Position numbers and translations under genes: made by a program
Notes under the pieces: model-generated
What the model was told of the DNA's origin: nothing
What the model saw: only the letters and a program-made list of their open reading frames with translations
Databases searched by the model: none
Assembly (NCBI GenBank): GCA_018105865.1
Contig: CM030867.1
Location: 4,901,869-4,965,868 of the forward strand
DNA length: 64,000 nucleotides
Direction: 5' to 3'
DNA from: Metaphire vulgaris
Lineage: Eukaryota; Annelida; Clitellata; Crassiclitellata; Megascolecidae
Shown here: one piece after another, positions 1,257 through 63,797 of the stretch
Numbering within the stretch: the stretch's first letter is position 1
How the letters are laid out: each line of letters begins with the position of its first letter

Positions 1257-2258
1257 TTAACCTCTTCCAGGGGTTCGCCGTTTATAAACGGTGTGCTATA
1301 TAAGCGACTGTGTACCGCGGACCTGCAATTTTTTCAAAAATTCAACGCGGCAACCGATGCGGTTTGCACCGTTGTTGAGCATTTTTATTGCTCTTTCTAT
1401 CCATCCGTGCCAAAAGAAAAAAGTTGGTAGTAGGGACCACTCTACACCCCAAAATCGGATCCCTCCCCAACATTTTGTTCAAATTTTGATCAAAGGTCAA
1501 TAGCAAAACGTCTTCAGCGGTAAACCCCCAAATGTGAGTGATAGAGTTCTAGAGGAGTGTAATTGGAACAGAATGGTGCAAAAATTTTGAAGATCGGACC
1601 ATATTTGGGGTAATTATGAAGTTTCATACCCAAGTGCCAATTGCTGGCTGAAATGAAAATTACGCGAACGGATTTTCAATGGGAAAAACCGAACAACTCA
1701 GTATATTTCATGCTATATAGAAGCTAGAAAGATGCGGTTTGCACCATTGTTGAGCATTTTTGTTGGTCTTTCGAACCATCCGTGCAAAAAAAATTTGGGG
1801 GGTAGGGTCCCCTCTATACCCCAAAATCGGACCTTGTACGACAAAAAATTTTCAAAGCTCAATAAAAAAAATTTTCATTGATGACCCCCCAACTGTGAGT
1901 GAGAAAGTTGTAGGGATGTGTAATTGGAACAGAATAGTGCAAAAATTTTGAAGATCGGACCATATTTGGCGTAGTTATGGCCATTCTAGCCTCCGGCTGA
2001 AGATTTTTCGTATACATTTTCCAGCCTTGGTTGTTACAAAGCCAATATCTCTTGCATATATAGTCAGCGTTATTGAAAACTGTGCTGCCGCCTATCGAAA
2101 GGATGTGAACTAAATCGGTTGCCGCGTTGGAATTTTGAAAATTGTGCAGGTCCGCAGTACACAGTCACTTATATAGCGCAACGTTTTAAAACGGCGAACG
2201 CCGTTAGTCATGGTTTTCCGCCGCCGTCTTTAAACGGCGAACCCTCGGAAGAGGTTAA
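1257..2258 (+). mobile_element. TTAA-flanked non-autonomous element, copy A (two like ends)
   Basis: TTAA lies at 1257-1260 and 2255-2258. This copy is unusual because both ends are of the 'GCCGTTT' type, giving inverted repeats of roughly 100 bp that run from CCTCTTCC to the CAACGCGGCAACCGAT block (left at about 1261-1360, right at about 2114-2254). The left arm lacks about 40 bases present in the right arm. Inside are two direct copies of a unit starting GCGGTTTGCACC (near 1359 and 1734). The reading frames inside are by-products of the repeat and not genes. Confidence 0.85.
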
Positions 2259-2400
2259 TATGTATGAACCTAGCCCCTCACGTGACTAATAATGACTTGT
2301 TAGCCAACATCCATTGGCTGTCATGACAACATTAGCAAATCTCAGATACAGTTTCAAAATATGCAGCCCAGAGTGCTTTGAAATCACTGATCACATGCCA
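2255..2400 (-). repeat. Right arm of a diverged inverted repeat (partner 85-225)
   Basis: Its reverse complement shares TATTTTGAAACT, ATGACAGCCAA, CACGTGAG and CTAGGTTCATACATATTAA with 85-225. The arm abuts the TTAA element that ends at 2258, so that element probably inserted at the inner edge of this arm. Confidence 0.55.
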
Positions 2401-2880
2401 GTCATAGCATCCTTGGCAATAAAGCTGAAGAGGACAAGGGTGGGGAGCACCCTCCTCTGCCTCTTCAATGTTCAATATCTGTCCGAAAACACTGATATCT
2501 GAGCGCATTACAATTTGGTTGTGACGAATGAATTCATTTGCCTAGCAGATCTTCCTTAGGCTGTTGATTCCTAGTGGTCTTCATTCCTTTCTATCCTTGC
2601 TTAATCTGCAAAAGAAACAGTCAGATACAGGTTCACAACACAACCGTCAACTGTGTCTTCCTGAAGACACCTTCCAAATCCTCTAACAAATGTCGGAGGC
2701 TGGACTTAGAAATGATCACACTGAGAGAAGGAAGGTGCACAGAATATTCAAGATAAAGCCTTAAGCAGATAGGGCCAAATATTTATCATGAATGGCAGAC
2801 GAGGTTGAGGAGGATCTCCTCCACAATTTCACTCGATCACTGTTCAAAGCGATCAAAGCCAGACAAGACTATGCACTCAC

Positions 2881-3662
2881 CAGTGATGTTAATCCCTGTC
2901 CTGGTCCTTGTCCTTAAGGACTCCTTAAGGACCAATGTGAAGTCCTTGTCCTCGTCCTTGGGAAGTCAGTCCTCGTCCTTATCCTCGTCCTTGGAGCTCG
3001 GCCTCATCCTTATCCTCGTCCTTGCAGGTCAGTCCTTGTCCTGGTCTTTGTAACTTAGTCCTTTAAAAGTCCTTATAAGGACCAAATTACTTGTATACCA
3101 TTTTCAATTCTACTGATTATTATGTTACAAGGTAGGAGTAGTATGTGGATTTATTTTTACATACTTGTTTTGAGTTACTTTAAATGTGTAGTAATTGTTT
3201 CCTTTATAATACCAGTTGAGGAGTGTCCCTTATAATACCAGTTGAGGAGTTGATTCTTTAGCAGTATTATTTATTGGCCTGCGAGGTTGGCTCCATTTTG
3301 AACGAGTGTTTTCGCAAAGTGGTCTCATAATTAGACCTCATCGTGTGTGCTTGACTGATCAGCTGTTGGAAACACTTGTTTACTTGAAATGCAACATTGC
3401 TGTTGACTAGATTGTGTGTTACAACATTCTTTTTTTGCTTCTCTAATTTTGTGATTGAAATTCAAATTGTCTTTGATTTTTTCTTTTCTGACTTTTTTTG
3501 TCTGACAGAGGTTGGTCCTTGTCTTTGATCCTTGTCCTTAGAGGTCAGTCCTTGTCCTCATCCTTGGGGGTCGGGGTAGGTTCTTGTCCTTATTCTCGTC
3601 TTTGGGGTTGGTCCTTGTCCTTATTCTCGTCTTTGGGGGGTCGGTCCTTGTTAACATCACTG
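2881..3662 (+). mobile_element. Non-autonomous hAT-type element with GTCCTTGTCC arrays
   Basis: The element has perfect 12 bp inverted ends (CAGTGATGTTAA at 2881-2892, TTAACATCACTG at 3651-3662). Perfect 8 bp target duplications GCACTCAC sit at 2873-2880 and 3663-3670, which is diagnostic of hAT transposition. Both subterminal zones (about 2896-3080 and 3505-3655) carry an imperfect minisatellite of GTCCTTGTCC/GTCCTCGTCC units, on the same strand at both ends. The middle is unrelated AT-rich sequence and no transposase is encoded. The element sits inside a reverse transcriptase relic. Confidence 0.92.
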
Positions 3663-4379
3663 GCACTCACTGGAGGTCATTGTACCTCACCATCGTTCAC
3701 GACGATCAAAAATCAGACTTATCTTCATGCAGTTCTGCTAATGAGGTTTTGAAACAATGAAAGGAGCATTTATTCGATACCATTAACTTTTCTTCTGGAA
3801 TAAAGTCCAATGATCTTCACTCTGACATGAACATCAGCAATGATGAACCCCCTCTGGAGGAGGTGATTTCTGCTACCAAGAAACTACAGTGTAAAAGTGG
3901 CTGTGCTACAGGACAGCAGTGTTCCTCCAGAACTCCTGAGATCTGCTATAGGACCTATCAGTTTTGCCCTCAACTCCATATTTAGTCAAGTATGATGGAC
4001 TGGTCATGTGCCTGCAGACTGGAAGGATGGATTCATTTAATCTACATTGGGTAAAGGCTCAAAATGTGAATGCAGCAATTACAAGCTGATGACCTTACTA
4101 TCAGTCCCTGATAAGGTCTTTGCACTGTTATGGTTGTGATTTGCTTACTTATTTTATATACATAGATTTGCAGTCTTTGGGTTTGCTCTTCCTCTTCCGT
4201 TTTGATGTTTGTACTGATATGACACTCGAGAATTGTAAAATTTTATTAAATCAACTGATTTCTCGTCTTATAATATAACATCTCGCTCCGAGCCTCCAAC
4301 AGCACATGTTCTGCTTGCATACATCCAACTTCTGCTTCTCAAAATCTGCTGACCTCAACAATCTGGCTTCACTCCCGGA

Positions 4380-4712
4380 CAGGGTTATTTCTAGGATTGT
4401 GAATTTGGGGGGGTGTCAAGAAAATCTGGGTGGGAGGTGCCGGAATTTGGAAATTTTTGGCCAAAAAAGGCTGAAAAGCAAAAAAACGTTAAAAACGTTA
4501 TCAAGGTCTCAAAAAGGGTCTGACAAGCAAAATAAAAAAGGTCATCCGAGAATAGAAGTTGGGGGTGTACTTCTCCATTTGGGGGGGTGTTCAGGGCAAA
4601 TTAGTATGCATTTTGTATGCATACCATTGTCACATCACCAACTATTGGGGGATGTCGACCTCAAATTGGGGGGATGTTGGGGGGGTGTTAGGGGAGTGTA
4701 AAAATATCCCTG
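4380..4712 (+). mobile_element. hAT-type MITE with G/C-run ends
   Basis: The ends are CAGGGTTATTTC (4380) and GTAAAAATATCCCTG (to 4712), inverted over about 12 bp with mismatches. Flanking 8-mers CTCCCGGA (4372-4379) and TTCCTGGA (4713-4720) differ only by two C-to-T changes, as expected for a decayed target duplication. The interior has runs of G ('GGGGGGGTGT') at both ends. It interrupts the reverse transcriptase relic at 2760-4925. Confidence 0.75.
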
Positions 4713-5989: not shown

Positions 5990-6231
5990 TTTTGAACAAT
6001 ATTCAACGTCTTGCATTCAAGTCCATTAACCAGATTGCTCCAGGGTGCCTTCAGGGGTATTTCATACCAACAACATCACGGAAGTTAAAACTGTGCCTGC
6101 GGTCCGATGCTCAGAGTCTTATGAAAAGACCTCACTGTAAAACATCACTCGGTTTCAGGTCATTTGCAGTTTAAGTGTCGGTGCGAAAGACATGGAACAA
6201 TCTACAGATAATTCTGAAATCATCCTGTTCC
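5990..6231 (+). mobile_element. CR1-like C-terminal fragment
   Basis: The sequence around 5995-6230 reads IQRLAFKSINQIAPGCLQGY, then a Ser/Arg-rich RSDAQSLM block and VSVRKTWNNLQ after one stop. This is the order of motifs in the C-terminal domain of CR1-type proteins (R-S-x-xG...W-N-x-LP). At about 6232 it joins a different LINE fragment that starts inside the reverse transcriptase domain. Confidence 0.55.
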
Positions 6232-7310
6232 TGTAACACGTCAGCCAAATGTTCTGTCCACTGTGGAGTGCCACAAGATTCAGCTTTAGGCTCGCTCCTT
6301 TTTATCCTCTACGCAGCGGATCTGGGATGGATCGCCAGGTCATACGGGTTGAACTGGCATGATTTCGCGGATGATGGGCAGGTGTACGCCTCCTGCCATC
6401 CCTCAGATGTGGGGCACCTGCGATCTCGGTTTGAAGATTGTCTACATGAGATGATGTCATGGACCGCGACAAATCGCCTCGCACTCAATCACGGTAAAAC
6501 AGAATTGTTATGGATCAGTACTCCCAGGAAGGCTCACCTATTAGATCATTCTCCATTTACGATCGGTGACGCTGTCATCACTCCGTCTACGGAAGTGCGC
6601 CTTCTGGGTGTATTTCTTGACAACTCTCTATCTCTTGCCGGCCAAGTGAGCTCCGTAACTCGCGCCTGCTACTTTCAGCTGCGCAAGATCACAGAGATTC
6701 GACGGTACATATCTACATCAGCAGTGATCCATGTAGTCCGGGCACTAGTGCTATTCAGGTTGGATTATTGCAATAGCATTCTTCTGGGGCTTCTGAACTA
6801 CTAGCTAGACTATCTCTAATCGGTCATGGACGCTGCAGCCCGATTGATCATCTGTGCGAAATGGAGGGATCATGTGACTCCATTGCTAAAAGAAAGGCTA
6901 CACTGGCTTAAGATCTTGGAGCGTATAGTTTATAAACGTTATACGTTGACATTCCGAGCACTGAACGATCCTCTCTGCCTCGAGTATCTTTCTGCGCTCA
7001 TGCGGCGGCCGATGTCGTCAGACTGTCGGAAACAGCTGCGATCGAACAGGCGACTTCGCCTTTATGTCCCTCCCCCATCCAAGACGGTAATGCTGGGGGA
7101 AAGATCCGTAACCCGCGGCAACCCTCTTCTCTGGAATGCTCTTCCCGCCTCAGTGACATTGATTACATCCTTCGAGGCGTTTGCGACTGCCCTCAAGACG
7201 CATTTATTTCGCATATCTTATGAACATTTGTAAATCGCTCTTGATTTTAGCTCTAGCTATGTTATAGCGTTAAATAAATTATCTAAGGAATAGAATAGAA
7301 TGTTATCTGA
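6232..7310 (+). pseudogene. CR1-like LINE reverse transcriptase, 3' half
   Basis: Two open stretches (to 6801 and 6826-7230) follow each other with one break. They contain a decayed GVPQDSALGSLLFILYAADL motif (family GVPQGSVLGPLLF), FADD in place of YADD at the catalytic site, the conserved RLDYCNSILLGL block, AAARLI, LHWL, and the C-terminal LWNALPASV...LKTHLF. The fingers and the endonuclease are missing. The tail at 7240-7310 has 'TTATAGCG' and repeated AATAG units typical of these 3' ends. With D replaced upstream and a broken frame it cannot be active. Confidence 0.85.
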
Positions 7311-8109: not shown

Positions 8110-9705
8110 TCCACTAGATTTTGACTCAACCCCAACAAAACTCAGCTGGCGATTGAAGTTCTTATTAGACCTACAATGATCTTAAATGCATCGCTTGCCC
8201 AGGAAACAGTTCCATGCAATATCAAAAGGGCGATCATCTTTCCTAAACTCAAGTGGCAGAACTTGGATCCAAATGAACTAGCAAACTTCCGGCCCATATC
8301 TAACCTTTGATACCTTTCAAAGATACTTGAAAAGACGGTTGCAGCTCAGCTTGCACAGTATATAGAGGAACATCAGTACCTACCGGAAGAACAATCTTCA
8401 TATCGCCCCTATCATTCTACGGAAACGGCGCTACTTAACATTCTATCTGAAGTTTTTGATGCGGCTGATCAAGGTCAGGTAACTGCATTAGTACTTTTAG
8501 ATCTTTCTTCTGCATTCGACTGTGTTGGCCATGACATTCTACTTAAAAGACTTCAGTGTCACTACGGAACCTGCGGTTCTGCTTTACGTTGGATTACTTC
8601 CTATCTTTCAGATAGAGTGGTACAAGTGTTTTACGAAGGTGAACTGTCTAGCCCAAGACTGATGTTCATTGGCGTCCCGCAGGGTTCCATTCTCGGGCCA
8701 CTGTTTTTTTATCCTGTTTATTAGTAAGCTTCGGGAAGTCATCTGCAAATATCACCTTCGGTTCCACTTCTACACTTCTATGCTGATGATACTCAGCTTT
8801 ATCACAGTTGTTGTCCTACCGACTTGTCGGAGGTTCTACAGATACTTGCGAGCTGTATTCAGGAAATTGATTCCTGGCTGAGAAGCAGCTGGCTAAAGCT
8901 TAATCCGGGAAAAACAGAATTTATCATTCTTGGTAATCGTAAACAAACGACCAAGGCAGATTCAGTAGCACTTAACCTTTGGAATAATGTTATCAAAAGA
9001 TCCGAGCAAGTTAAAGATCTTGGAGCTAATCTCGATGAAAATCTTACGATGGCGAATCACATTAGTAAAATAGCATCAGGATGTTTCTACCTGCTTCGAC
9101 AACTACGGGTAGTAATTGACTCTCTGTCGCAGGAATCAGTGCAAGTATTGTACCATGCATTCATAGCATCTCGTCTCGATTACTGTAATAGCCTACTTAC
9201 ATGTACAGCCAGAAACCAAATATATAGACTCCAACTTGTTCAGAATGCCGCTGCACGACTCATCACGTGGACCTCAAGGCGGCAACACATCACCTCTGTT
9301 CTGCAACAACTCCACTGGTTGCCGGTACATAAGCGAATATCGTACAAGCTGCTTTCGCTAGTCGACAGATGTCTAAGAAAAGAAGCTCCGCAGTATCTTA
9401 TTCGAGGCTGTAAACTGTTGTCTGATATAGCTCTCACTCGAACGATGGTCACACGTTCCAATTCCACCAGGACATTATCCGTGCCACGCACTCGTACCAG
9501 AATGGGAGAGCGTGCGTTCAGGGCGATTGGTCCATCACTCTGGAATCAGCTTCCATATCCTCTTAGAGATGGAATTTTAAACCGTGATATTTTTCTCGCT
9601 CGACTTAAAACATATATGTTTGGCCTGGCAACCAAGGTGCATTTGTAATAATTGCGCCTAGTAAATGAACTTTATGTATGTATGTATGTATGTATGTATG
9701 TATGG
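8110..9705 (+). pseudogene. CR1-like LINE with most of the reverse transcriptase domain
   Basis: The domain can be followed from NFRPISNL (about 8290, one stop inside) through YRPYHSTETALLN, LVLLDLSSAFDCV, IGVPQGSILGPLFF (about 8670), a frameshifted YADDTQLYH (8775-8810), and then one 274-residue open frame (8824-9645). That frame has WLKLNPGKTEF, SRLDYCNSLL, AAARLIT, LHWLPV, GERAFRAIGPSLWNQLP and LKTYMFGL. The element ends in a (TATG)n tail at about 9673-9703. At least two frameshifts and one stop make it inactive. No endonuclease is left. Confidence 0.9.
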
Positions 9706-9825: not shown

Positions 9826-10866
9826 TTAACCTTTTAAAGGGGGAATTAAATTTTTTAAGTCATCCCCGACGGGGGAATTAATTTTTAGAATAGGCGTTTG
9901 TATGAAAACGTGAACATATACGTTATAAACTTACTATATTTCAGGCTATATAGAAGCTAGAAAGATGCGGTTTGCACTGTTGTTGAGCATTTTTATTGCT
10001 CTTTCTATCCATCCGTGCCAAAAGAAAAAAGTTGGGGGTAGGGACCACTCTACACCCCAAAATCGGACCCCTCCCCAACATTTGTTCAAATTTTGATCAA
10101 AGGTCAATAGCAAAACGTCTTCAGCGGTAAACCCCCAAATGTGAGTGATAGAGTTCTAGAGGAGTGTAATTGGAACAGAATGGTGCAAAAATTTTGAAGA
10201 TCAGACCATATTTGGGGTAATTATGAAGTTTCATACCCAAGTGCCAATTGCTGGCTGAAATGAAAATTACGCGAACGGATTTTCAATGTGAAAAACCGAA
10301 CAACTCAGTATATTTCAGGCTATATAGAAGCTAGAAAGATGCGGTTTGCACCATTGTTGAGCATTTTTGTTGGTCTTTCGAACCATCCGTGCAAAAAAAA
10401 ATTGGGGGGTAGGGTCCCCTCTATGCCCCAAAATCGGACCATGTCAGATAAAAAATTTTCAAAGCTCAATAAAAAAATTTTCAGCGGTGATCCCCCCGAC
10501 TGTGAGTGAGAAAGTTGTTGGGATGTGTAATTGGAACAGAATAGTGCCAAAATTTTGAAGATGAGACCATATTTGGCGTAGTTGTGGCCTTTCTAGCCTC
10601 CGGCTGAAGATTTTTCCTATACATTTGCCAGCCTTGGTTATTACACAGCCAATATCTCTGGCATATATAGTCAGCATTATCGAAAACGGTGCTGCCGCCT
10701 ATCGAATGGATGTGAGCTAACTCGGTTGCCGCGTTGGAATTTTGAAAATCGTGCAGGTCCGCAGTACACAGTCGCTTATATAGCGCACCGTTTATAGACG
10801 GCTAACGCCGTTTCGTTATGGTTTTCCGCCGCCGTCTTAAAACGGCTAACTCTTGGAAAAGGTTAA
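9826..10866 (+). mobile_element. TTAA-flanked non-autonomous element, copy B
   Basis: The element is bounded by TTAA at 9826-9829 and 10863-10866. The left end is CCTTTTAAAGGGGGAATT and the right end closes with CTCTTGGAAAAGG. The two ends are alike only for about 7-8 bases. Internally a unit starting TTCAGGCTATATAGAAGC occurs twice, at about 9940 and 10314, a period of 374 bp. The right subterminal zone carries GCCGTTT/AAACGGC palindromes (about 10780-10850). There is no transposase. Confidence 0.9.

Positions 10867-11580: not shown

Positions 11581-11614
<34 letters not shown>
11286..11614 (+). mobile_element. CR1-like LINE 3' end with (TTGA)n tail
   Basis: The plus strand reads VVPYSRTVIGTSCFSVCGPK, LWNSLPISLR and FGLKTYLFDLAY followed by a stop. 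The tail is (TTGA)n at 11583-11614. The next base begins a truncated TTAA element, so the tail marks the insertion junction of this LINE. Confidence 0.8.
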
Positions 11615-11616
<2 letters not shown>

Positions 11617-11617
<1 letters not shown>

Positions 11618-11755
11618 ACCGCATCTTTCTAGCTTCTATATAGCCTGAAATATAGTAAGTTTATAACGTATATGTTCACGTTTTCATACGAACGCCTTTT
11701 CCCCAAATTAATTACCCTGTGGGGGATGACTTTAATTACCTCTTTAAAGGGTTAA
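11617..11755 (-). mobile_element. TTAA element, half copy C (one end only)
   Basis: The 139 bases match the AAAGGGGGAATT-type end of the family in minus orientation, running from AAACCGCATCTTTCTAGC to TCTTTAAAGGGTTAA. TTAA is at 11752-11755. The rest of the element, including the other end, is missing and replaced by the (TTGA)n tail of a LINE. Confidence 0.85.
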
Positions 11756-27347: not shown

Positions 27348-28392
27348 TTAACCTTTTCCATGGGTTAGCCGTTTTAAGACGGCGGCGGAAAACTTTGACC
27401 AAACGGCGTTAGCCGTCTATAAACGGCGCGCTATATAAGCAACTGCGTACTGCGGACCTGCATGATTTTTAAAAATCCAACGCGGGGACCGAGATAGCTC
27501 ACATTCATTTGATAGGCGGCAGCACCGCTTTCGATAATGCTGACTATATATGCAAGGGATATTGACTGTGTAACAACCAAGGCTGGAAAATGTATAGGAA
27601 AAATCTTCAGCCGGAGGCTAGAAAGGCCATAACTACGCCGAATATGGTCCGATCTTCAAAATTTTGGCACTATTCTGTTCCAATTACACCTCCCAACAAC
27701 TTTCCCACTCACAGTTGGGGGGTCACCGCTGAAAATTTTTTTTATTGAGCTTTGAAAATTTTTTGTCGGAGATGGTCCGATTTTGGGGTGTAGAGTGGAC
27801 CCTACCCCCCAAAAATTTTTTTTGCACGGATGGTTCAAAAGCCCAATAAAAATGCTCAACAATGGTGCGAACCGCATCTTTCTAGCTTCTATATAGCCTG
27901 AAATATACCGAGTTGTTCGGTTTATCACATTGAAAATCCGTTCGCGTGATTGTCATTTCAGCAAGCAATTGGTACTTGGGTATGAAACTCCATAACTACC
28001 CCAAATGTGGTCCGATCTTCAAAATTTTTGCACCATTCTGTTCCAATTACACTCCTCTAGAACTCTATCGCTCACATTTGGGGGTTTACCGCTGAAGACG
28101 TTTTGCTATTGACCTTTGATAAAAATTTGAACAAAATGTTGGGGAGGGGTCCGATTTTGGGGTGTAGAGTGGTCCCTACCCCCAACTTTTTTCTTTTGGC
28201 ACGGATGGATAGAAAGAGCAATAAAAATGCTCAACAACGGTGCAAACCGCATCTTTCTAGCTTCTATATAGCCTGAAATTTAGTAAGTTTATAACGTATA
28301 TGTTCACGTTTTCATACGAACACCTTTTCCAAAAATTAATTCCCCCGACGCGGGATGACTTTAAAAATTTAATTCCCCCTTTAAAAGGTTAT
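27348..28392 (-). mobile_element. TTAA-flanked non-autonomous element, copy D
   Basis: The left boundary is TTAA (27348-27351) followed by the GCCGTTT-type end. The right boundary is CCCCCTTTAAAAGG followed by TTAT, a one-base decay of TTAA, at 28389-28392. The orientation is minus relative to copy B. The two internal units (reverse of GCGGTTTGCACC) end near 27874 and 28250. There is no coding function. Confidence 0.88.
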
Positions 28393-28434: not shown

Positions 28435-28569
<135 letters not shown>

Positions 28570-32706: not shown

Positions 32707-33755
32707 TTAACCCATCAACTGGGTTCGTCGTATATATACTACGTGCGTCATTCATTCCGCAAATGGGTTCGTAGTATATATACGACGCTCAACTTCAACG
32801 TCTGTTCCTCAAATGGGTTTGTCGTATATATACCTTCCAATGCAATAATTTGATTTAGTTACTATTCATTTGCAAGATGGTAGCTCACTTTTAGCTAGTG
32901 TTGCTGCCCTAAGCAAGGAAAATAGGCTTGATTTGACTGAGGGTCCGAGTTTTAGCATTGAAAAGAGACATTTCTGGGGATTGAAAAATCATAACTACGC
33001 CAAATTGGGTCCAATCTTCAAAATTTTTGAACAATTCTGTTCCAATTACACCTGCCTACAACTTTACCGCCCACACTAGGGGGTCACCGCTGAAAATATT
33101 TTGCTATTGAGCTTTTAAAGAAATTTTTGGGAGGGGGTTCGATTTTACGCTGTGGAGTGGACCCTACCCCAAAAATTTTTTTTAGCACGGATGGTTAGAA
33201 AGAACAATAAAAATGCTAAACAATGGTGCAAACCTCATCTTTTTAGCTTCTATATAGCCTGAAATATACTGAGATGTTCGCTTTTTCAGATTGAGAAATT
33301 TTTTTCTCAATATGTTCATTTCTCCGAGCAATGTGTTCTAGGGTTTGAAAAATGATAACTACCCAAAATTGGGTCTGATCTTCAAAATTTTTGAACTATT
33401 CTGTTCCAAATACACCCGCCTACAACTTTGCTGCTCACACTAGGGGGGTTACTGCTGAAAACGTTTTGCTATTGAGCTTTGAACAAAATTTGAAAAAAAC
33501 CTTGGGGAGGGGTCCTATTTTAGATTGTAGGGTGGACCCCACCCACAAAATTTTCTTTTTGGCACGGATCATTAGAAAGAACAATAAAAATGCTAAACAA
33601 CGGTGCAAACCTCATTTCTATAGCTTCTATATAGCCTGAAATATAGTAAATTTTAAACTTATATGTTCACATTTTCATATGAACGCTTTTACCCAAAATT
33701 AATTACCCAGATTCGGGAGGGTTTGTAAAATGTTATTCCCCTGTTAAAGGGTTAA
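32707..33755 (-). mobile_element. TTAA-flanked non-autonomous element, copy E (diverged subfamily)
   Basis: TTAA lies at 32707-32710 and 33752-33755. The left end is CCCATCAACTGGGTTCGTCG, with three copies of a GGGTTCGT(C/A)GTATATATAC box. The right end is TTCCCCTGTTAAAGGG. The internal duplicated unit (reverse of GAGGTTTGCACC) is present twice. With copy F it forms a subfamily that has GTATATATAC boxes where the others have GCCGTTTTAAAACGGC, and GAGGTTTGCACC in place of GCGGTTTGCACC. Confidence 0.88.
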
Positions 33756-44460: not shown

Positions 44461-44467
44461 GATTTGA

Positions 44468-44864
44468 GGGGCTGTTCATTAATTACATCAACAATTTAGG
44501 GGGAGGGGGATTGAAAAAGTTTGACAGGGGGAGGGGGTCAAAAGAAGTTGACTTCAACAATTTCACTTTTTACAAATAATAAAAAACTAGGGAATTTCAT
44601 GGAATACTACTTATTATAATGGAAAAAAGCATGGCAAAAAAGGTCATTACCATCACATTTTGACACTCAACGAGCAAAAAAGGGAAAAAATGGTCATCAT
44701 CGCAAACAATATTAACCTTGTTATTGGGACCTGTCATTGATCTGGGGGGTCAAAAGTTTTTGACGTAATTATGGGTGGGTTAACTGAAAGTTGACAGTTG
44801 TTGACAAGGGTGGAGGGGGTCAAAAATTGCCCAAAAATTGTTGACATAATTAATGGACAGCCCC
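44468..44864. mobile_element. Harbinger-like MITE (GGGGCTGTTCATTAATTA ends)
   Basis: The ends GGGGCTGTTCATTAATTACA and, reversed, GGGGCTGTCCATTAATTATG are inverted for about 33 bases with few changes (TCAACAATTT follows in both). TGA flanks both sides (44465-44467, 44865-44867), a 3 bp duplication of the T-N-A form expected for PIF/Harbinger. G-rich runs and GGGGTCAAAA motifs lie inside. It sits at the 5' edge of the RTE relic. Confidence 0.78.
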
Positions 44865-46331: not shown

Positions 46332-47345
46332 TTAACCCCTTAACAGGGGAATTACATTTTAGAAGTCGTCACCAATTTGGGTAATTAATTTTTGGGAAAA
46401 GCACTCATATGGACTGTGAACATATAAGTTTTAAATTTACTATATCTCAAGCTAAAGAAATGAGGTTTGCACCATTGTTTAGCATGTTTATTGTTCTTTC
46501 TAACCATTCATGCCAAAAATTTGGGGGTAGGGTACACTCTACAGCCTAAAATCAGCCCCCTCCCAAAATTTTGTTCAAAGCTCAATAGCAACAAATTTTC
46601 AGCGGCGACCCAACTTTTGTGAACGACAAAGTTGTAGAGTGGTGTAATTGGAACAGAATAGTTCAAAAATTTAGAAGATCGGACCCAATTTGGGGTAGTT
46701 ATCATTTTTCAAACCCTAGAACTCATTGCTCGGAGAAAAGAAATTTTTTCATAAATTTTGCAAGCTGAAAAAAATTACATTTCAGTATAGTTCAGGCTAT
46801 ATAGAAGATAAAGAAATGAGGTTTGCACCGTTGTTTAGCATTTCTATTGTTCTTTCTAACCATCCGTGCAAAAAAAAATTTGGGGTAGGGTACACTCTAC
46901 AGCCTAAAATCGGACCCCCTCCAAACATTTTTTTTCAAAGCTCAATAGCAAAAAATTTCAGTGCTGACCCCACTTTTGTGAGTGACAAAATTGCAGAGTG
47001 TTGTAATTGGAACAGAATAGTTCAAAAATTTTGAAGATTGGACCCAATTTGGGGTAGTTATCATTTTTTGAACCCTAGAAATGACACTGTTGCAAAGCAA
47101 AAATCAGGCCCTCTTTCGAATAACACCTATTTTCCTAGCTTATGGTGGGCACTATAGCTAAAAAAGAGCTACCATCTACTGAATGGATAACAATTAAATC
47201 AAATTATTACATTAGAACGTTTATAAGCGGCGAACCCATTTGAGGAGTAGACGCTGAAGTTGAGCGACATGTATACATGGCAAACCCATTTGAGGTATGA
47301 TTGGCATATGATGTGTATACATGGCGAACCCAGTTAAGAGGTTAA
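46332..47345 (+). mobile_element. TTAA-flanked non-autonomous element, copy F (diverged subfamily)
   Basis: TTAA lies at 46332-46335 and 47342-47345. The left end is CCCCTTAACAGGGGAATTAC and the right end CGAACCCAGTTAAGAGG. The internal unit starting GAGGTTTGCACC occurs twice (near 46461 and 46817). The right end has three GAACCCATTTGAGG/AACCCA boxes separated by GTATACATGGC-like sequence. It is the plus-oriented sister of copy E. Confidence 0.88.
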
Positions 47346-51454: not shown

Positions 51455-53715
51455 GCATTACATGAAAACATGATAGACTATATCATCAGTAGAGTAGAGT
51501 GGTTAACTTCAGTGAAATAGACAAGAGTATGCAGATCTGCAGAAATTAATTCAGATCACCACCTTGTTGTATTCGAGATAAAAGTTAAAATAAGTGAGGA
51601 AAAAAGTGCCAAGGAAAAGGTGCTTCAATACTGAAAAAATAAATCAAATGGATGTACAAAATAAATTTCAAATCAAAATCCAAAACAGACTTGAGGCACT
51701 AACAAACCTGACAGATAATGACAAAGATCCAGAAATAGAATGGGAAAATTTCAAGACAGAAATTAACAAAGTGGCAGAAGAGTAACTAGGCTACAGAAAG
51801 ATAAGGAAAAAGAAGAAACTGGAGAATTGCAGGCAGAAATAAGAAAATCTAAAGAAGGAGCCATGTATCCTGGTAAGTATGGAATTGAAAATATGACTGA
51901 CAACATGCTGGAAGAGACGGCAAATGAGATGGGAGATGCTTACAAAAGAAGAGATGGCAAAAAACTCTTTGCAAATGTCAACAAACTCAGTGAAGGCACA
52001 TTCACAAAGATGATAAACATTGAACCAATTAAGGATAGAAATGGAGAAATATTAACAGAGAAGGAAAGGATCATGGCCAGATGGAAACAACATTTTGAAG
52101 AGGTACTAAACCAAGAAGACCCTAACAAACCAAAAGAAACTTTTATTGAAATAGTCCAATCAGAGGACAGATGTAAAATAGAGGATGAGTTATGTGAAGA
52201 AGACGATATTATAATGGAAGAAATAGAAAGGGCAGTGAAACAGATGAGCCAAAACATAGCCCAGGACTCTGCAATATCACAGCAGAAATGCTCCAAAACA
52301 CTGGTGTGTATACAATCAGTTGGCTACATCGGGCCTTGACAGCGGTATTGACAACTGAGAAAACACCATTAGACTGGAGAAAAGCAATTATAATACCAAT
52401 ACACAAGACAGGAGACAGAAAGGAATGCAACAACGCCAGAGGCATGAGCCTCTTAAGCACACCAGGGAAAGCTTTCACCAGTCATGCTAAGCAGAATAAA
52501 GAATACAGTGGATGAAACTCTCTGGGAAAGCCAGTTTGATACTCAGAAAGGGAAGAGCATGTTCTGACCAAATCTTTGTCCTTTGACAACTCATGGAGAA
52601 AAAAAAACTAGAATTTAATGAAGATTTGATCATGTGCTTCATTGATTTTGCCCAAGCTTATGTCTCTATCTGGAGAGAAGGGGAAAAGGGGCATGGAAAC
52701 TCTTGGGGAAATATGGCATTCATGCCAAAATAATCAGGAAAATTGAAAATTTCTACAGCACAGTTTTAGCATGTATCAGAATTTATGGAGAAGAAACTGA
52801 GTGGTTCAAAAGCTAAACAGGATTTTGATAATGATGTGTCCTATCACCAATACTCTTCAACATTTTATTAGATTGCATCATGAGACAGATTGAAAATACA
52901 AGTGGGTTGGGAACATCTTTAAAGTCAGGAAATACAGATGATGCAGAATATACTGATGATACATGTATAATAGCAGAATGCCTCCCAAGGATTTTAGAAT
53001 TAACATTGGCCTTAATAACAAAGAGTGGAAAATTTGGATTACAAATAAGCACTAATAAAACAAAAATAATGCCAATTACAAAGAAAGTGGGAGATTGATC
53101 AATAGTAACACACTATGGAAAAGAAATTGAAAGGGTGAAGAAATTTGTTTACTTGGGAAGTGAATTGGAAGCAGAGGGAGGCTCAGACCTGGAGATCAAA
53201 AGAAGAATTAGCAATGGCAGGATCTACATTCAATAGGCTACATACCAAAATTTTCAAAAGACATGACATTGGGATGAAAACAAAACTAAAAACTCTCAAC
53301 ACTTGTGTAATACCAATATTAATATATGGACAAAGAACACATAACAAATGAAGAAGTTAGAGAGAGAGAATACTGCAACTGAGCATCATGGAAGTATTCA
53401 GAAAGAGAAGAATGAAATGGACTGGACACATACTCAGAATGGAAGAAATAAGAAACTTATAAGGAATTTTCAACTACAAGCCAGAGAGGAGAAGATCTAA
53501 AGGAAGACCGAAAAGATGATGGGTGGATGGATTGGAAGAGGATCTGCACATGACAGGGCTGAATCTCAATGGAAAAACTGACAAAAGACACTGAATGACT
53601 TTGAAAGAAATAGCAAAGGATAAAGAACTTTGGAGAGATGTCATGGAGAAGTCGATAGCTGGACACAGCTGGAGGATGAAGACCTGACCTGAGCAAGACC
53701 TGACCTGAGCAATAC
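51455..53715 (+). pseudogene. RTE-like LINE relic, second copy of the 42395-44460 family
   Basis: The plus strand starts with the end of an endonuclease (SAEINSDHHLVVFEIK). It continues with the linker (MARWKQHFEEVLNQEDPNKP), PLDWRKAIIIPIHKTGDRKE, CFIDFAQAYVSIWREG, a decayed ILSPILFNIL, EYTDDTCIIAEC (the YADD site reads YTDD), VYLGSELEAEGG, and the C-terminus RKRRMKWTGHILRMEEIRNL with WVDGLEEDLHMTGLNLNGKT. The tail repeats GACCTGACCTGA. It is frame-broken in many places and the catalytic alanine is replaced. Confidence 0.87.
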
Positions 53716-55250: not shown

Positions 55251-55435
55251 TGCTGCTTAACACACTGACTGCGGCACAGTTTATTTGCCTGGCGTGGCTG
55301 CTCTTGACCAGAACAGATGCAACTACTTAGAGATAATTACCTGTTACTAGTATAATAGTTATCTCAACAATGGCGATTGAAGTATACAATGTCGCAGGTC
55401 ACGAATGCAAAGCAATGACATTGGCAATTACAATT

Positions 55436-56995
55436 CTCCGATCTACTCGCACCGTTCATCACTGCACTCTTCAATCGCTCGATGTCCGCCGGAATCGTGC
55501 CGACAACATTCAAGTCAGCCTACATAACCCCGAGACTTAAGAAATCCAACTCAGACCCCGCCGATGTGAAGTCATACAGGCCGATCTCTAACCTGACAGT
55601 TTTATCAAAGCTTCTCGAGCGGCTCGTTTCTCATCAACTCATCCGTTACCTGACAACATCCAATCTGCTTCCCGATCTACAGTCTGCATACCGCGCCTAC
55701 CACTCTACTGAAACCGCTGTGTTGAAAGTTACATCTGACATTCTCCGTGCGCTCGACAGGGGGGATGTAGCAGTCATCGTGCTGCTGGATCTTACTGCCG
55801 CCTTTGACACAGTGGACCATGGCACGCTGCTGCGTAAGATGGAAGCTTCGTTCGGAGTGGGCGGCTCAGTGCTCCAGTGGTTTGCTTCCTACCTATTGAA
55901 TCGCACGCAGCACGTACGCTGTGCCAACTCTGCTACGCCGCTGAACCAAGTATTGCGCGGGGTTCCACAGGGGTCCGTCCTGGGACCTATTCTTTTCGTG
56001 CTCTACGTTGCTGACATAGTGAGCATCGTTCAGCGGTTTGGATTGCATGCTCACCTCTATGCAGATGATACACAGGTTTACGGGAGCTGTTCCCCTGCGA
56101 CAACCGAACTGCTCCAGCAGAGAATCACGCTGTGCCTGACAGAGTTGTCCAAGTGGCTGAAGCCGCATCGGTTACAGCTCAATGCTGCTAAGACCGAGGT
56201 CCTTTGGTTGGCTGCTGAAAGACAGAAACATTTGATGCCGTCTACCTGCATACCTATCGACGGAATTGATGTGCATCCGTGTCGCCGATACGGAACCTCG
56301 GATATTCCTGGATAGCACCGTATCAATGAAGACACACGTTTGAAGACTGTGGCTGGATGTTTCAATGCCCTCAGGCTGATTAGAAGTATTCGTCGCTCAG
56401 TGTCAGCCACTGCACTCAAAACACTGGTCTCCACTCTGGTGTTGACCAAATTAGATTATGGCAATGCTACTCTCGCCGGAATACGGAAATACCTTCTCAA
56501 TCGTCTTCAGTCCGTTCTTAACGCTGCTGCTCGTATGATCTGCCATATTCCACCAGGTGAACACGTAACTCCATCGCTTCGTGATTTGCACTGGCTATCA
56601 GTGCCAGAAAGAATCCACTTCAAGCTCGCGTTATTAGCCTACCGTTGCCTGAATGGTGTCGGCCCTGTATACCTGGCGACTGAACTGGTACGAGTAGCTA
56701 ACTTGGAAGGTCGGCAACGCTTGAGATCCGCCCGTTCCACCTCACTGGTCGTTCCAAGGATGCGCCTTCGAACTGTCGGTGATCGCACGTTCCCTGTGGC
56801 CGCGTCGAGAGCGTGGAACTGTCTGCCTCCATTTGTGCAGCTCTCTCCTTCTCTCAACACCTTCAAAGAGAAGCTTAAAACCTGGCTTTTCCGCAGGAGC
56901 TACTTGTGATTTCTTGTGTTTTGTATGTGTTCACGCAGTTCTTTTAGGACGAGTTACCACATTAATCAGTACGTTGTAATAATAATAATAATACT
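55436..56995 (+). pseudogene. CR1-like LINE, nearly full reverse transcriptase, best preserved in the window
   Basis: The frame from 55482 (277 codons, in phase with homology back to 55438, DLLAPFITALFNRS) contains KSYRPISNLTVLSKLLERLV, YRAYHSTETAVLKV, VLLDLTAAFDTVDHGTLL, LRGVPQGSVLGPILFVLYVA and LYADDTQVYGSC (YADD intact). A frameshift near 56290 leads to a second frame of 189 codons with LVLTKLDYGNATLAGI, NAAARMICH, LHWLSVPERI and WNCLPPFVQL to LKTWLFRRSYL. The 3' tail is (AAT)n at about 56978-56994. The 5' part (endonuclease, ORF1) is missing. It is inactive because of truncation and the frameshift. Confidence 0.92.
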
Positions 56996-59890: not shown

Positions 59891-59905
59891 TTATTATTAT
59901 TATTA

Positions 59906-59944
<39 letters not shown>

Positions 59945-60243: not shown

Positions 60244-61289
60244 TTAACCTTTTAAAGGGGGAATTAAATTTTTAAAGTCATCCCGCGTCGGGGGAATTAA
60301 TTTTTGGAAAAGGCGTTCGTATGAAAACGTGAACATATACGTTATAAACTTACTAAATTTCAGGCTATATAGAAGCTAGAAAGATGCGGTTTGCACCGTT
60401 GTTGAGCATTTTTATTGCTCTTTCTATCCGTCCGTGCCAAAAAAAAAAAGTTGGGGTAGGGACCACTCTACACCCCAAAATCGGACCCCTCCCCAACATT
60501 TTGTTCAAATTTTGATCAAAGGTCATTAGCAAAACGTCTTCAGCGGTAAACCCCCAAATGTGAGCGATAGAGTTCTAGAGGAGTGTAATTGGAACAGAAT
60601 GGTGCAAAAATTTTGAAGATCGGACCATATTTCGGGTAGTTATGGAGTTTCATACCCAAGTACCAATTGCTTGCTGAAATGACAATTACACGAACGGATT
60701 TTCAATTTGCAAAACCGAACAACTCGGTATATTTCAGGCTATATAGAAGCTAGAAAGATGCGGTTTGCACCATTGTTGAGCATTTTTATTGGGCTTTCGA
60801 ACCATCCGTGCAAAAAAGAAATTTGGGGGGTAGGGTCCACTTTACACCCCAAAATCAGACCATCTCCGACAAAAATTTTCAAAGCTCAATAAAAAAAAAA
60901 TTTCAGCGGTGACCCCCCAACTGTGAGCAGGAAAGTTGTTGGGAGGTGTAATTAGAACAGAATAGTGCAAAAATTTTGAAGATCGGACCATATTCGGCGT
61001 AGTTATGGCCTTTCTAGCCTCCGGCTGAAGATTTTTCCTATACATTTTCCAGCCTTGGTCAGTCTACAGTCAAATATCCCTTGCATATATAGTCAGTATT
61101 ATCGAAAACGGTGCTGCCGCCTATCGAATGGATGTGAGCTAGCTCGGTCCCCGCATTGGAATTTTTGAAAATCGTGCAGGTCCGCAGTACACAGTCGCTT
61201 ATATAGCGCGCCGTCTATAGACGGCTAACCCCGTTTGGTCAAAGTTTTCCGCCGCCGTCTTAAAACGGCTAACCTGAGGAAAAGGTTAA
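60244..61289 (+). mobile_element. TTAA-flanked non-autonomous element, copy G, inside a LINE frame
   Basis: TTAA lies at 60244-60247 and 61286-61289. The left end is CCTTTTAAAGGGGGAATT and the right end ACCTGAGGAAAAGG. The internal unit GCGGTTTGCACC occurs twice (about 60387 and 60760), 374 bases apart. The target is a CR1-like reverse transcriptase whose frame resumes across the site once a single TTAA is counted. Confidence 0.92.
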
Positions 61290-61540
61290 AGAGCAAAGTT
61301 CAGCAGTGTACGGTATGTACAACAGAGGACCAAGCACCAAACCTTAGGGAACACAAAAAGGGACATGAAGCCAGTTTGTGCGAGAATACTCCGTAACAAT
61401 CATTTGAGATCGGTTAGAGAGATAGGATGAATACCACAGAAGGGCTTGATCAGAAATTCCAAATGAGACTTTCAGATGTTTCAACAATATGTCATGATCA
61501 ACCGTATCAAAGGCACTTTAAACATTAAAACAGACTGATG
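61290..61540 (-). pseudogene. CR1-like LINE, part upstream of the MITE insertion, minus strand
   Basis: The minus strand reads a decayed FDTVDHDILLKHLKVSFGI, SNRSQMIVTEYS, and VLGPLLYIPYTAELCSL right up to the TTAA (family GVPQGSVLGPLLF). One stop and one frameshift are present. Its continuation with YADD lies at 60050-60243. Confidence 0.8.
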
Positions 61541-61554
61541 ACGCAAGGGAGATG

Positions 61555-62650
61555 TGTCGTCTGAGGTCTCATTACAGTGCCTGTTTGACGTTTGGGTACT
61601 GCTGAGATATATGGAGCTTTCTTTGTTGGTTCTATAATTTCGCTACCAATGGACACCAATGAAGGATAAGGGCTGAATCATCTTCTTCCCGGAGGCTTTT
61701 GTTGCGGCAGCAGCCCCGAAGTCGGAGAGATATTTGGTGGCATCAGCTTTAGGAGGCAGAAAGAGGGTGGTGTCATCAGCATAGACCATGTCTTAGAAGT
61801 TATGGGAGCTGACGTTAAATCCTGAAATAGATGACATATGGTTCAGGATCCAATCAATGGCAATGCAGAACAGACCAGGAGGGAGGATACACTCCTGTTG
61901 GATGCCAGATGATATCTTAAATTTTTGGAGAGTTTTTGACCAACAAGGATGGAGGTGCCTGTGTGTTGATGAAGATCAATGATCAGTATAAGTATGATAT
62001 CAGGCATACCCTTTAAATGGAGTGCCTTATAAAGCACCTCACGATTGACCGAGTCAAATACTGCTTTGATGTTGAGGTAAGCAACGTTTGGCAGATGGTC
62101 AAATTCGTGATGCAATTTGGTGAGAAATCTCCAGGTAAGAATAGCATAGCATCTATGGTGGAGTGTCCAGGGATAAAGCCTGATTGCTGAGGTCTTTGGG
62201 TTTTTCATCTGGAGTGGTTCACTTGCGGGCCAGAAGTTCATGAGCATAGACCTTTCCAGGTACCGTCAGGAGCATTATCAATTGGTAGTTTCCACAGTCG
62301 GTCTTGGAGCCTTTTCCTTTGCATAGTGTGACAATGATTTCGTCCTTCCAGTAAGCAGGTACTTGGCCTGTTTTCCAGTCCTAGACAAACATTGAATGGA
62401 AGGTGGAACTGTTTGGTCTGATGTCATATTTCAAGATTTCTGGAGGAATCCTGTCTGGGCCCACCACATATCCACTTTTGAATTTCTTAATGGAGCGGCC
62501 CACCTCTTCTGGAGATGATTCATCTATGGGAACCTCAGCATGGTTTCAGCTCAGGTGCACCAGACCAGAATTGAGATCACTGAACGGAGTGCCAGAGGGA
62601 AAGTTGAGGGTCATTGAGAAAGGCTCTCTTCAGCGGGAGCCTCGTTGATG
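61555..62650 (-). pseudogene. LINE reverse transcriptase relic, same family as 2760-4925, minus strand
   Basis: The minus strand reads WKTGQVPAYWKDEIIVTLCK with GKGSKTDCGNYQ, LLTVPGKVYAHELLAR, FDHLPNVAYLNIKAVFDSVN, REVLYKALHLKGMPDIILI, and DMVYADDTTLFLPPKADATK with YLSDFGAAAATKASGK. YADD is intact; stops and frameshifts are several. This copy shows what the other one lost at its palindrome (N-I-K-A-V-F-D-S before the REVLY block). I do not have a firm clade for this family. Confidence 0.78.
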
Positions 62651-62755
62651 GAGGAGCAGGTGGAACCGTCTAATTTGTTGATCGAATGGGAGGACGAGGT
62701 GTGCTGGCGGCCTGCTAGAGTCTGGATTGTCTTGAAGAGTAAAGAAACACATCAA

Positions 62756-63797
62756 TTAACCTATTCCAGGGGATCACCGTTTTAAAATGGCGGTGGAGAA
62801 TCATAGCTTACAGGGAACGCCGTTTTAAAACGGCGCGGTAGATAAGCATGTGTGTACCGCGGACATACGATTTTTACATTTATCCAACGCGCCAACTGAT
62901 TTACTTACCATCCATTCGATAGGCGGCTGCACCGTTTTCGATATTATTGACTATATATGAAAGAGATATTGGCTGTGTAACGACCAAGGCTGGAAAATGT
63001 ATAGGAAAAATCTTCAGCCGGAGGCTAGAAAAGTCATAACTACGCCAAATATGGTCCGATCTTCAAAATTTTTGCACTGTTCTGTTCCAATTACACTCCT
63101 GTAAAAATCTCTTGTTCACAGTTGGGGGGGGTCACTGCTGAAAATTTTTTGTTGGCACTTTGAAATGTTTTTTCGGAAGGGGGGTCCGATTTCGGGGTGT
63201 AGAGTGGACCCTACCCCAAATTTTTTTTGCATGGATGGTTCGAAAGACCAATAAAAATGCTCAACAATGGTGCAAACCGCATCTTTCTAGCTTCTATATA
63301 GCCTGAAATATACTGAGTTGTTCGGTTTTTCACATTGAAAATCCGTTCGCGTAATTGTCATTTCAGCGAGCAATGGGTACTTGGGTATGAAAAGTCATAA
63401 CTACCACAAATTGGCTCCGATCTTCAAAATTTTTGCACTATTCTGTTCCAATTACACCTCCCTAGAACTTTCTCGCTCCCATTTGGGAGGTTACCGCTGA
63501 AGACGTTTTGCTATTGACCTTAGATCAAAATTTGAAAAAAATGTTGAGGAGGAGTTCGATTTTGGGGTGTAGAGTGGTCCCTACTCCCAACTTTTTTCTT
63601 TTGGCACGGATGGATAGAAAGAGCAATAAAAATGCTCAACAACGGTGCAAACCACATCTTTCTAGCTTCTATATAGCCTGAAATATAGTAAGTTTATAAC
63701 GTATATGTTCATGTTTTCATATGAACGCCTTTTCCAAAAATTAATTCCCCCATCGGGGGATGACTTCAAAAATTTAATTCCCCCTTTAAAAGTTTAA
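62756..63797 (-). mobile_element. TTAA-flanked non-autonomous element, copy H
   Basis: TTAA lies at 62756-62759 and 63794-63797. The left end CTATTCCAGGGGATCACCG is of the GCCGTTT type. The right end CCCCCTTTAAAAGT is of the GGGGGAATT type with one change. The orientation is minus. The two internal units end near 63280 and 63654. 63798-64000 contains nothing I recognise. Confidence 0.9.

What the first reader, a model, noticed from the sequence alone, without database searches (positions are those of the whole stretch)
1257..63797. A TTAA-flanked non-autonomous family of about 1 kb with an internal direct repeat, eight copies in 64 kb
Copies at 1257, 9826, 11617 (half), 27348, 32707, 46332, 60244 and 62756 share TTAA flanks, a CC(T/C)(T/C)TT start and unlike ends. 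The full ones hold two direct copies of a unit beginning near GCGGTTTGCACC, 374 bp apart in copies B and G. TTAA targets and CCYT-like ends point to piggyBac-type mobilisation. An internal dimer plus unlike termini (an AT-rich GGGGGAATT end and a palindromic GCCGTTT end) is an unusual architecture, and the local density is high.
Basis: partly seen in the sequence, partly recalled or inferred. Interest (0 to 1): 0.8.

Follow-up and report, generated by a model that had tools for sequence, protein, structure and literature searches.

The report
Non-autonomous piggyBac transposons, locally clustered
The eight repeats are about 1-kb pieces of mobile DNA that carry no gene of their own and are very probably moved by piggyBac-type enzymes encoded elsewhere in the same animal-like genome; the kind is known, but one of their two ends seems to change its palindromes, probably enzyme-binding sites, in an unusually coordinated way.

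Summary
Seven full copies (1,002-1,049 bp) and one left-end fragment lie between TTAA sites (one flank reads ATAA), show no conserved gene, and contain an old internal direct repeat. In the host genome (728 Mb, unnamed) 31 of 32 full copies examined have TTAA on both sides. Two empty target sites were found, one strong and one weaker.

The family is non-autonomous piggyBac. The right end has GGGTT-plus-palindrome modules at a 44-bp step, at the positions known for piggyBat's left end and piggyBac's palindrome. The left end has GGG motifs where piggyBat's right end has them. Unlike ends are thus normal here. Five of 116 scored transposase places carry copy E's right-end motif just upstream; one also has the matching left tip downstream, outlining a relative of about 3.2 kb (positions only). 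No helper was found for subfamily I.

Less ordinary: the right end diverges faster than the left (3-4 times in subfamily I). Its palindromes differ between subfamilies and between E and F, yet agree within an element, while the interior is kept. This suggests, without proving, a change of transposase. The window has about 81 times the genome's average density of left tips.

The parts
1257..2258 (+). Copy A, full length, subfamily I; its left end is an inverted right end with one palindrome module
   Evidence: TTAA at 1257-1260 and 2255-2258; left end matches model 890-987 in reverse; module deletion aligned
9826..10866 (+). Copy B, full length, subfamily I
11616..11755 (-). Copy C, left end only; breaks off in an (ATTG)n run
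   Evidence: nhmmer model 1-149; sequence
27348..28392 (-). Copy D, full length, subfamily I (left flank ATAA)
32707..33755 (-). Copy E, full length, subfamily II
46332..47345 (+). Copy F, full length, subfamily II
60244..61289 (+). Copy G, full length, subfamily I; inserted into a broken LINE reverse-transcriptase frame
   Evidence: joined flanks align ungapped over 137 aa through the junction, 45% identity to P0022
62756..63797 (-). Copy H, full length, divergent subfamily I
10830..10847 (-). Right-end palindrome P1 of copy B (position 20-37 from the outer TTAA)
   Evidence: 7 of 9 pairs
10786..10803 (-). Right-end palindrome P2 of copy B (position 64-81)
   Evidence: 6 of 9 pairs
32726..32743 (+). 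Right-end palindrome P1 of copy E (CGTCGTATA type)
   Evidence: 8 of 9 pairs; genome pattern
32770..32787 (+). Right-end palindrome P2 of copy E
   Evidence: 8 of 9 pairs
47309..47326 (-). Right-end palindrome P1 of copy F (CGCCATGTA type), weak
   Evidence: 5 of 9 pairs
47265..47282 (-). Right-end palindrome P2 of copy F
   Evidence: 7 of 9 pairs
61253..61270 (-). Right-end palindrome P1 of copy G
   Evidence: 7 of 9 pairs
61209..61226 (-). Right-end palindrome P2 of copy G
   Evidence: 8 of 9 pairs
27367..27384 (+). Right-end palindrome P1 of copy D (P2 at 27411-27428)
   Evidence: 7 of 9 pairs each
62775..62792 (+). Right-end palindrome P1 of copy H (P2 at 62818-62835)
   Evidence: 7 and 9 of 9 pairs
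2222..2239 (-). Right-end palindrome P1 of copy A (P2 at 2179-2196)
   Evidence: 7 of 9 pairs each
1276..1293 (+). Single palindrome in the right-type left end of copy A
9936..10309 (+). Internal unit 1 of copy B
10310..10683 (+). Internal unit 2 of copy B; 73% identical to unit 1
60355..60728 (+). Internal unit 1 of copy G (unit 2 at 60729-61102)
46431..46786 (+). Internal unit 1 of copy F (unit 2 at 46787-47142)

Best explanation
These are copies of one family of non-autonomous piggyBac-superfamily DNA transposons (MITE-like, about 1 kb). A piggyBac transposase made by other elements of the same genome binds the ends, cuts the element out at TTAA and inserts it into another TTAA. The right end, with two GGGTT-plus-palindrome modules 44 bp apart and a weaker third about 50 bp further in, is the strong multi-dimer binding end, like piggyBat's left end. 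The left end, with GGG motifs near bp 11 and 44 and no matching palindrome, is the weak partner, like piggyBat's right end. The internal dimer arose before the copies compared here diverged and is passive cargo as far as tested. SHOWN: TTAA duplication, empty sites, unrelated flanks, positions and covariation of the palindromes, and (by position, subfamily II only) transposase matches next to the same end motifs. INFERRED: that those transposases move this family, that the palindromes are bound by transposase C-terminal domains, and that clusters come from local re-insertion or regional tolerance.
For: TTAA on both sides in 31 of 32 full copies, ATAA/TTAA in the other; 0 similar flank pairs. 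Empty sites: G interrupts a reverse-transcriptase frame that aligns ungapped over 137 aa through the junction when its flanks are joined on one TTAA (stops read as X); L022 sits in a repeat that is uninterrupted in L049, L041 and L037 at 77-85% identity, though beyond the junction only about ten bases precede a simple repeat. Palindromes: 100 of 126 Watson-Crick pairs at P1/P2 in 7 copies; the best of the other 899 joint offsets gives 55. On 31 right ends (30 distinct; L007 left out) 26 cells have both sides changed, shuffled mean 7.9, 0 of 500 reach it, slid controls at most 9. Positions match piggyBat LE motifs at bp 11-16 and 55-60 and the pB palindrome at bp 17-33 (passages). The genome gave 118 PF13843 matches (116 of 1,520 candidates scored); 35 have an open frame of 500 codons or more without an inner stop; 14 control genomes gave 0. 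E-type site GGGTTCGYMRTRTATAYA: 77 in the genome, 1 in the reversed control. 5 of 116 transposase places have it 438-975 bp upstream on the same strand, 0.005 expected. One, C11:9468951-9469748, also has a subfamily II left tip 1.4 kb downstream on the opposite strand, span about 3.2 kb. Kolobok is contradicted: its termini are 5'-RR (PMC9587614 passage); 30 of 31 right tips here start CCY.
Against: For subfamily I, to which most window copies belong, 0 of 58 perfect right-end palindrome sites lie within 3 kb of a scored transposase, and of 100 listed left tips (of 843) only one lies near a transposase, and that one is of subfamily II type. The 3.2-kb relative was seen as positions only; its open frame is 385 codons and its domain match covers 4-253 of 349, so it may be broken or spliced. 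One further subfamily II tip lies near a transposase in the wrong arrangement (C9). The strict CC[C/T]T tip is met by 16 of 31 right ends. The first, position-free palindrome scan was not clear-cut, F's P1 has only 5 of 9 pairs and the third palindrome is weak. No excision or polymorphism was observed.
Confidence: 0.92

Rival explanations
1. Another TTAA-duplicating superfamily (Kolobok or Sola3) moves the family, and the piggyBac likeness is superficial.
For: TTAA duplication alone does not separate these superfamilies (Kolobok: PMC9587614 passage; Sola3: recalled). No subfamily I helper was found.
Against: Kolobok termini are 5'-RR; 30 of 31 right tips start CCY. End motifs sit at piggyBac/piggyBat positions and beside PF13843 matches. 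Sola3 was not tested.
Confidence: 0.04
2. The window's copies are a locally duplicated array or large segmental duplication, not independent insertions.
For: Strong clustering: about 81-fold more left tips than average; 12 adjacent pairs among 40 mapped places lie within 1.5 Mb, null mean 3.1.
Against: Flanks of the copies are unrelated, orientations are mixed, and G and L022 have empty sites.
Confidence: 0.02
3. The faster right-end change and matching palindromes reflect neutral decay, CpG loss or recombination between modules rather than a change of transposase.
For: Modules recombine: A's left end and L007 each lack one module, which could homogenise palindromes without selection. Within subfamily I the palindromes vary about as much as the whole outer right end (0.155 and 0.171 against 0.150). 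Paired sites in one element may agree by shared descent.
Against: The right end stays faster after CpG masking (0.063 against 0.016, 24 of 27 copies). Changes keep two-fold symmetry. E and F differ more in P1+P2 (21 of 36 alike) than around them (68 of 82), P = 0.0095. E-type sites are found beside transposase matches, perfect I-type sites are not.
Confidence: 0.45
4. The internal dimer encodes a short peptide or a structured RNA that is the element's real function.
For: A 20-codon block (MRFAPLLSIF...) has a raised synonymous share, 0.37 against 0.14-0.25 in the other five frames; one unit of copy G folds modestly better than shuffles on either strand (z -1.85 and -2.29).
Against: No frame is conserved beyond that block; no protein relative at E 0.1 (1 candidate scored); consensus RNA fold of 6 of the 14 units has 1 of 59 pairs compensated; no Rfam match at gathering scores.
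Confidence: 0.04

Closest known systems
piggyBat (Myotis lucifugus piggyBac element), PMC11707139, PMC13405395 (passages only)
   Same: TTAA; strong end with motif-plus-palindrome modules at a 44-bp step (bp 11-16, 55-60); weak end with truncated motifs at bp 12-15 and 44-48 and no palindrome; unlike ends, both required
   Different: piggyBat encodes its transposase; its motif is GCGGGA, here GGGTT (right) and GGGGAATTA-like (left); third module about 50 bp further here, 44 there
piggyBac of Trichoplusia ni, PMC7351741 (passages only)
   Same: TTAA; palindrome at bp 17-33 centred near bp 25 (here 16-33, axis 24.5); asymmetric ends
   Different: the 19-bp palindrome is on both ends there, on one end here; autonomous
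CMITEs of Acropora corals, PMC2872659 (parts 1-3 of 4 read)
   Same: non-autonomous piggyBac-like, TTAA, tips such as CCCTTTAAGCCCTA, interior better conserved between families than the ends
   Different: about 100 bp long there; no 370-bp internal dimer reported; interiors not compared by program here
Xmix/Xstir T2-MITEs of Xenopus, PMC6004289 (passages only)
   Same: TTAA element whose interior was amplified as repeats
   Different: Kolobok type with AGGRR tips

Membership tests
piggyBac superfamily | 4-bp TTAA target duplication | tested here: met
   31 of 32 full copies TTAA/TTAA, 1 ATAA/TTAA; empty sites
piggyBac superfamily | CC[C/T]T terminal motif in 12-19 bp TIRs (as stated in PMC2872659) | tested here: inconclusive
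   Right tips: strict motif 16 of 31, CCY 30 of 31. Left tips mostly CCTT. Left and right consensus agree at 10 of 13 outer bases (read from the consensus printed), so the TIR is imperfect.
piggyBac superfamily | DDE_Tnp_1_7 (PF13843) transposase between the same ends | tested here: met
   By position only and for subfamily II only: one C11 element with both end motifs around a PF13843 match. For subfamily I not found: 0 of 58 perfect right sites near a scored match.
piggyBac superfamily | Precise, footprint-free excision | not testable with these tools
   needs cell assay or population data
piggyBat-like end architecture | motif plus palindrome at bp 11 and 55 of one end | tested here: met
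   GGGTT or a close form at 11 and 54/55 (not counting TTAA), palindromes at 16-33 and 59/60-76/77. Among 19 neighbouring E-type site pairs in the genome the step is 44 in 9, 50 in 8, 52 in 1, 94 in 1.
MITE / non-autonomous element | no transposase, shared ends, many copies | tested here: met
   no conserved frame; 843 left tips in the genome
Kolobok superfamily | termini 5'-RR | tested here: not met
   30 of 31 right tips start CCY, the other TCT; definition from PMC9587614
Sola3 | Sola3 transposase and tips | not tested
   no search for its transposase was made
Acropora CMITE | about 100 bp length | tested here: not met
   1,002-1,049 bp in the window

The most novel reading that the evidence does not exclude
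The family is a cargo that keeps its interior and weak left end while repeatedly changing the lock on its strong right end. The half-sites of P1 and P2 turn over together (CGCCGTTTT in subfamily I, CGTCGTATA in E, CGCCATGTA in F), each set matching the C-terminal domain specificity of a different piggyBac transposase lineage in the same genome. Non-autonomous elements would thus outlive their transposases by coordinated replacement of palindromic binding sites at one end only.
Probability: 0.35. Interest if true: 0.65.

Novelty: new member of a known kind. Interest (0 to 1): 0.42.

Why it matters
The end architecture that cryo-EM and biochemistry described for piggyBac and piggyBat appears here as a natural record: hundreds of copies (843 left tips), at least three palindrome types at fixed positions, and 116 scored transposase places, some of them broken, in one genome. 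If palindrome types can be paired with transposase C-terminal domains, this would give a natural DNA-recognition code for a widely used gene-delivery enzyme, and a direct test of how non-autonomous elements switch helpers.

Tried and rejected
Searches outside the host genome found nothing: an interior pattern in viral contigs and genome contigs, left-tip and right-palindrome patterns in viral contigs, the left tip in genome contigs, copy G against phages, and a 73-aa frame of the unit against proteins. These are mostly prokaryotic, viral or word-filtered collections, so the absence says little.

A functional RNA or peptide in the internal unit was tested and not supported. TTAA density was tested as a cause of clustering: 6.77 per kb in flanks of copies, 7.46 in random stretches, so no. 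A paper search on rapid end evolution listed nothing directly on point. Naming the host failed: protein relatives of a LINE in the window are mostly unnamed metagenome sequences.

The subfamily I autonomous partner was sought with one perfect-palindrome pattern and with the first 100 listed left tips, without success; a second palindrome pattern did not complete. The first palindrome scan was not clear-cut: right-end sums of 7-21, internal windows 0-15, shuffled 95% level 14. The position-fixed tests were made after it, on the positions it suggested.
Full report
WHAT IS THERE. The window holds seven full copies and one left-end fragment of a repeat family. First to last TTAA the full copies are A 1257-2258, B 9826-10866, D 27348-28392 (left flank ATAA), E 32707-33755, F 46332-47345, G 60244-61289 and H 62756-63797; the fragment is C 11616-11755. 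They lie in both orientations. A profile made from the seven copies finds no further copy in the window. They make up 11.5% of it. No frame is conserved along them.

INTERNAL DIMER. Each full copy has two direct units whose starts are 356-377 bp apart. Unit 1 of one subfamily I copy is 91-98% identical to unit 1 of another, but only 67-75% to the unit 2s of subfamily I. The duplication is therefore older than the subfamily. E and F show the same less sharply: 81% (unit 1) and 84% (unit 2) between copies, 77-78% between the two units of one copy. The interior gave no clear sign of function: consensus folding of 6 of the 14 units has 1 compensated pair of 59, there is no Rfam match at gathering scores, and no protein relative at E 0.1 was found for a 73-aa frame of copy D. 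A 20-codon block has a raised synonymous share (0.37, the other five frames 0.14-0.25), and one unit of copy G folds modestly better than shuffles (z -1.85 and -2.29). I regard these as weak.

INSERTIONS. The flanks of copies are unrelated. Among 32 full copies (7 in the window and 25 from 28 loci outside it; L014, L020 and L027 were dropped as incomplete) 31 have TTAA on both sides and D has ATAA/TTAA. Two empty sites were reconstructed. G splits a broken LINE reverse-transcriptase frame; joining its flanks on one TTAA gives an ungapped 137-aa alignment through the junction to P0022 at 45% identity, stops read as X. L022 splits a repeat that is whole in L049, L041 and L037 at 77-85% identity; this is weaker, because beyond the junction only about ten bases precede a simple repeat.

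ENDS. Counting the outer TTAA as positions 1-4, the seven right ends have a palindrome P1 at 20-37 and P2 at 63/64-80/81, preceded by GGGTT or a close form. At these places 100 of 126 pairs are Watson-Crick; the best of the other 899 joint offsets gives 55. The weakest is F's P1, 5 of 9. Changes are symmetric: in the seven copies 12 cells have both sides changed (shuffled mean 3.5), and in 31 right ends 26 cells (shuffled mean 7.9), with 0 of 500 shuffles reaching either value. Related sequences can exceed shuffles without constraint, so the slid controls matter too: they reach at most 4 and 9 cells. An earlier position-free palindrome scan was less clear. A third palindrome, about 50 bp further in, is recognisable but weak. 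In the six left-type ends GGGGAATTA-like motifs start at 14/15 and 46-48.

HOW IT MOST LIKELY WORKS. These positions match the piggyBac superfamily. In piggyBat the left-end motif lies at bp 11-16, 55-60 and 99-104, each followed by an imperfect palindrome; two C-terminal domains bind the first, and the right end has truncated motifs at bp 12-15 and 44-48 without a palindrome (PMC11707139, passages). In piggyBac the palindrome is bp 17-33, centred near 25 (PMC7351741, passages). Here, not counting TTAA, right-end motifs are at about 11 and 55, palindromes at 16-33 and 60-77, and left-end motifs at about 11 and 44. So the right end is probably the strong end and the left end the weak one; binding itself was not tested. 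Copy A has two right-type ends, the left one with a single module. In piggyBac, symmetrical ends work poorly with native transposase and better with the hyperactive one. Whether A jumped in this state or was converted afterwards is unknown.

THE HELPER. The host genome (G000, 728 Mb, 246 contigs, unnamed) gave 118 PF13843 matches from 116 scored of 1,520 candidates; 35 of the 118 have an open frame of 500 codons or more without an inner stop (counted from the list), and 14 control genomes gave none. Two second pieces of a gene were dropped, leaving 116 places. The E-type right-end site occurs 77 times (reversed control 1). Five of 116 places have it 438-975 bp upstream on the same strand, where 0.005 would be expected. 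Of the 100 listed subfamily II left tips (578 in all with up to 1 mismatch), three lie within about 3 kb of a scored transposase: two downstream in the expected orientation (C11:9468951-9469748 at 1.4 kb, C2:9689331-9690404 at 1.7 kb) and one (C9) in the wrong arrangement. The C11 one has E-type sites on its other side, giving an element of about 3.2 kb. The C2 one (652-codon frame) has no exact E-type site within 3 kb. Five other listed left tips pair with an E/F-type site 904-1,008 bp away, the length of these MITEs. For subfamily I, 0 of 58 perfect palindrome sites lie within 3 kb of a scored transposase, and the first 100 of 843 left tips give only the C2 place again. So no subfamily I helper is identified. 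All this rests on positions; the letters could not be fetched.

UNUSUAL PART. Between B, D, G, H and E, F the left end is 74-80% identical, unit 1 76-80%, unit 2 74-83%, but the right end 49-51% (A left out). E against F shows 85, 84, 86 and 73%; H against B, D, G shows 92-93, 90-92, 82-84 and 76-78%. In 27 subfamily I copies the mean distance to consensus is 0.026 for the left end and 0.088 for the outer right end (right larger in 26 of 27); with CpG columns masked it is 0.016 and 0.063 (24 of 27). Between E and F the ratio is smaller (0.16 and 0.27). These copies were found through unit 1, which may favour conserved neighbours; E, F and H were not chosen that way and point the same way. Half-sites agree within an element (0.72-0.93) and less between E, F and the rest (0.54-0.60 over all half-sites). 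Genome-wide, 19 neighbouring pairs of E-type sites agree at position 8 in 19 of 19 (20 of 10,000 shuffles) and at all variable positions at 0.895 against 0.81 (47 of 10,000); the pattern limits which sites are seen, and shared descent could add to this. E and F differ more inside P1+P2 (21 of 36 alike) than around them (68 of 82), P = 0.0095; this is one pair of copies. Within subfamily I the palindromes vary about as much as the outer right end as a whole. I read this as possible switching between transposases of different specificity. Module recombination without selection remains a close rival.

CLUSTERING. The window has 6 left tips (up to 1 mismatch) in 64 kb against 843 in the genome, about 81-fold. 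Because the window was singled out for its copies, the Poisson value overstates the case. Independent signs: 20 stretches of 10 kb elsewhere hold none, while flanks of 28 copies outside the window (63.6 kb) hold 5 more matches, one of them weak, and 40 mapped copies have 12 adjacent pairs within 1.5 Mb (null mean 3.1, 0 of 5,000 reach 12). Of 35 of these 40 copies, 23 lie within 500 kb of a scored transposase (null mean 7.3); five were left out for want of a scored transposase or a length of their contig. TTAA density does not explain the clusters. Local re-insertion, or shared permissive regions, are both possible.

NOVELTY. A new family of a known kind. Coral CMITEs (PMC2872659, parts 1-3 of 4 read) already show better conserved interiors than ends in piggyBac-like MITEs, and Xenopus MITEs show internal amplification (PMC6004289, passages). 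In the searches, of which most papers were seen as listings only, I saw no report of coordinated palindrome change in such elements; only part of the literature is held there.

The tip-to-transposase comparison was rerun with all 100 listed tips. The confidence of the main reading was lowered from 0.93 to 0.92 and Kolobok/Sola3 raised from 0.03 to 0.04, for the missing subfamily I helper.

Noticed in passing
window 1257-1366 and 11616-11755: Copy A's foreign left end and copy C's break both fall at the same GATGCGGTTT stretch at the start of unit 1, which may be a recombination-prone spot.
   Followed up: no
L007 right end (L007:2202-2286): A copy elsewhere in the genome also lacks one right-end palindrome module, like A's left end; module loss recurs.
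   Followed up: partly
window 42398-44482 and 51767-53692: Two long inverted copies (86-91% over stretches of 222-529 bp) of a LINE-like element face each other about 8-11 kb apart.
   Followed up: no
window 6175-6804, 8311-9648, 55419-56909: Broken LINE reverse-transcriptase frames (RVT_1 in three of the frames tested; the frames at 8311-8724 and 56316-56909 were not scanned). Closest relatives of the last, at about 60% identity, are mostly unnamed metagenome proteins, two labelled as a Methylomicrobium MAG, which looks like host DNA in a bacterial bin.
   Followed up: partly
G000:C9:8159632-8159743: Three E-type sites in a row at 44 and 50 bp steps, the full three-module right end in one place.
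   Followed up: no
G000, whole genome: At least 116 piggyBac transposase places, 35 with an open frame of 500 codons or more, in one genome: a rich set.
   Followed up: partly
window 11586-11616 and about 28437-28560: Fragment C directly adjoins an (ATTG)n run, and copy D lies about 45 bp from a long (CA)n run.
   Followed up: no
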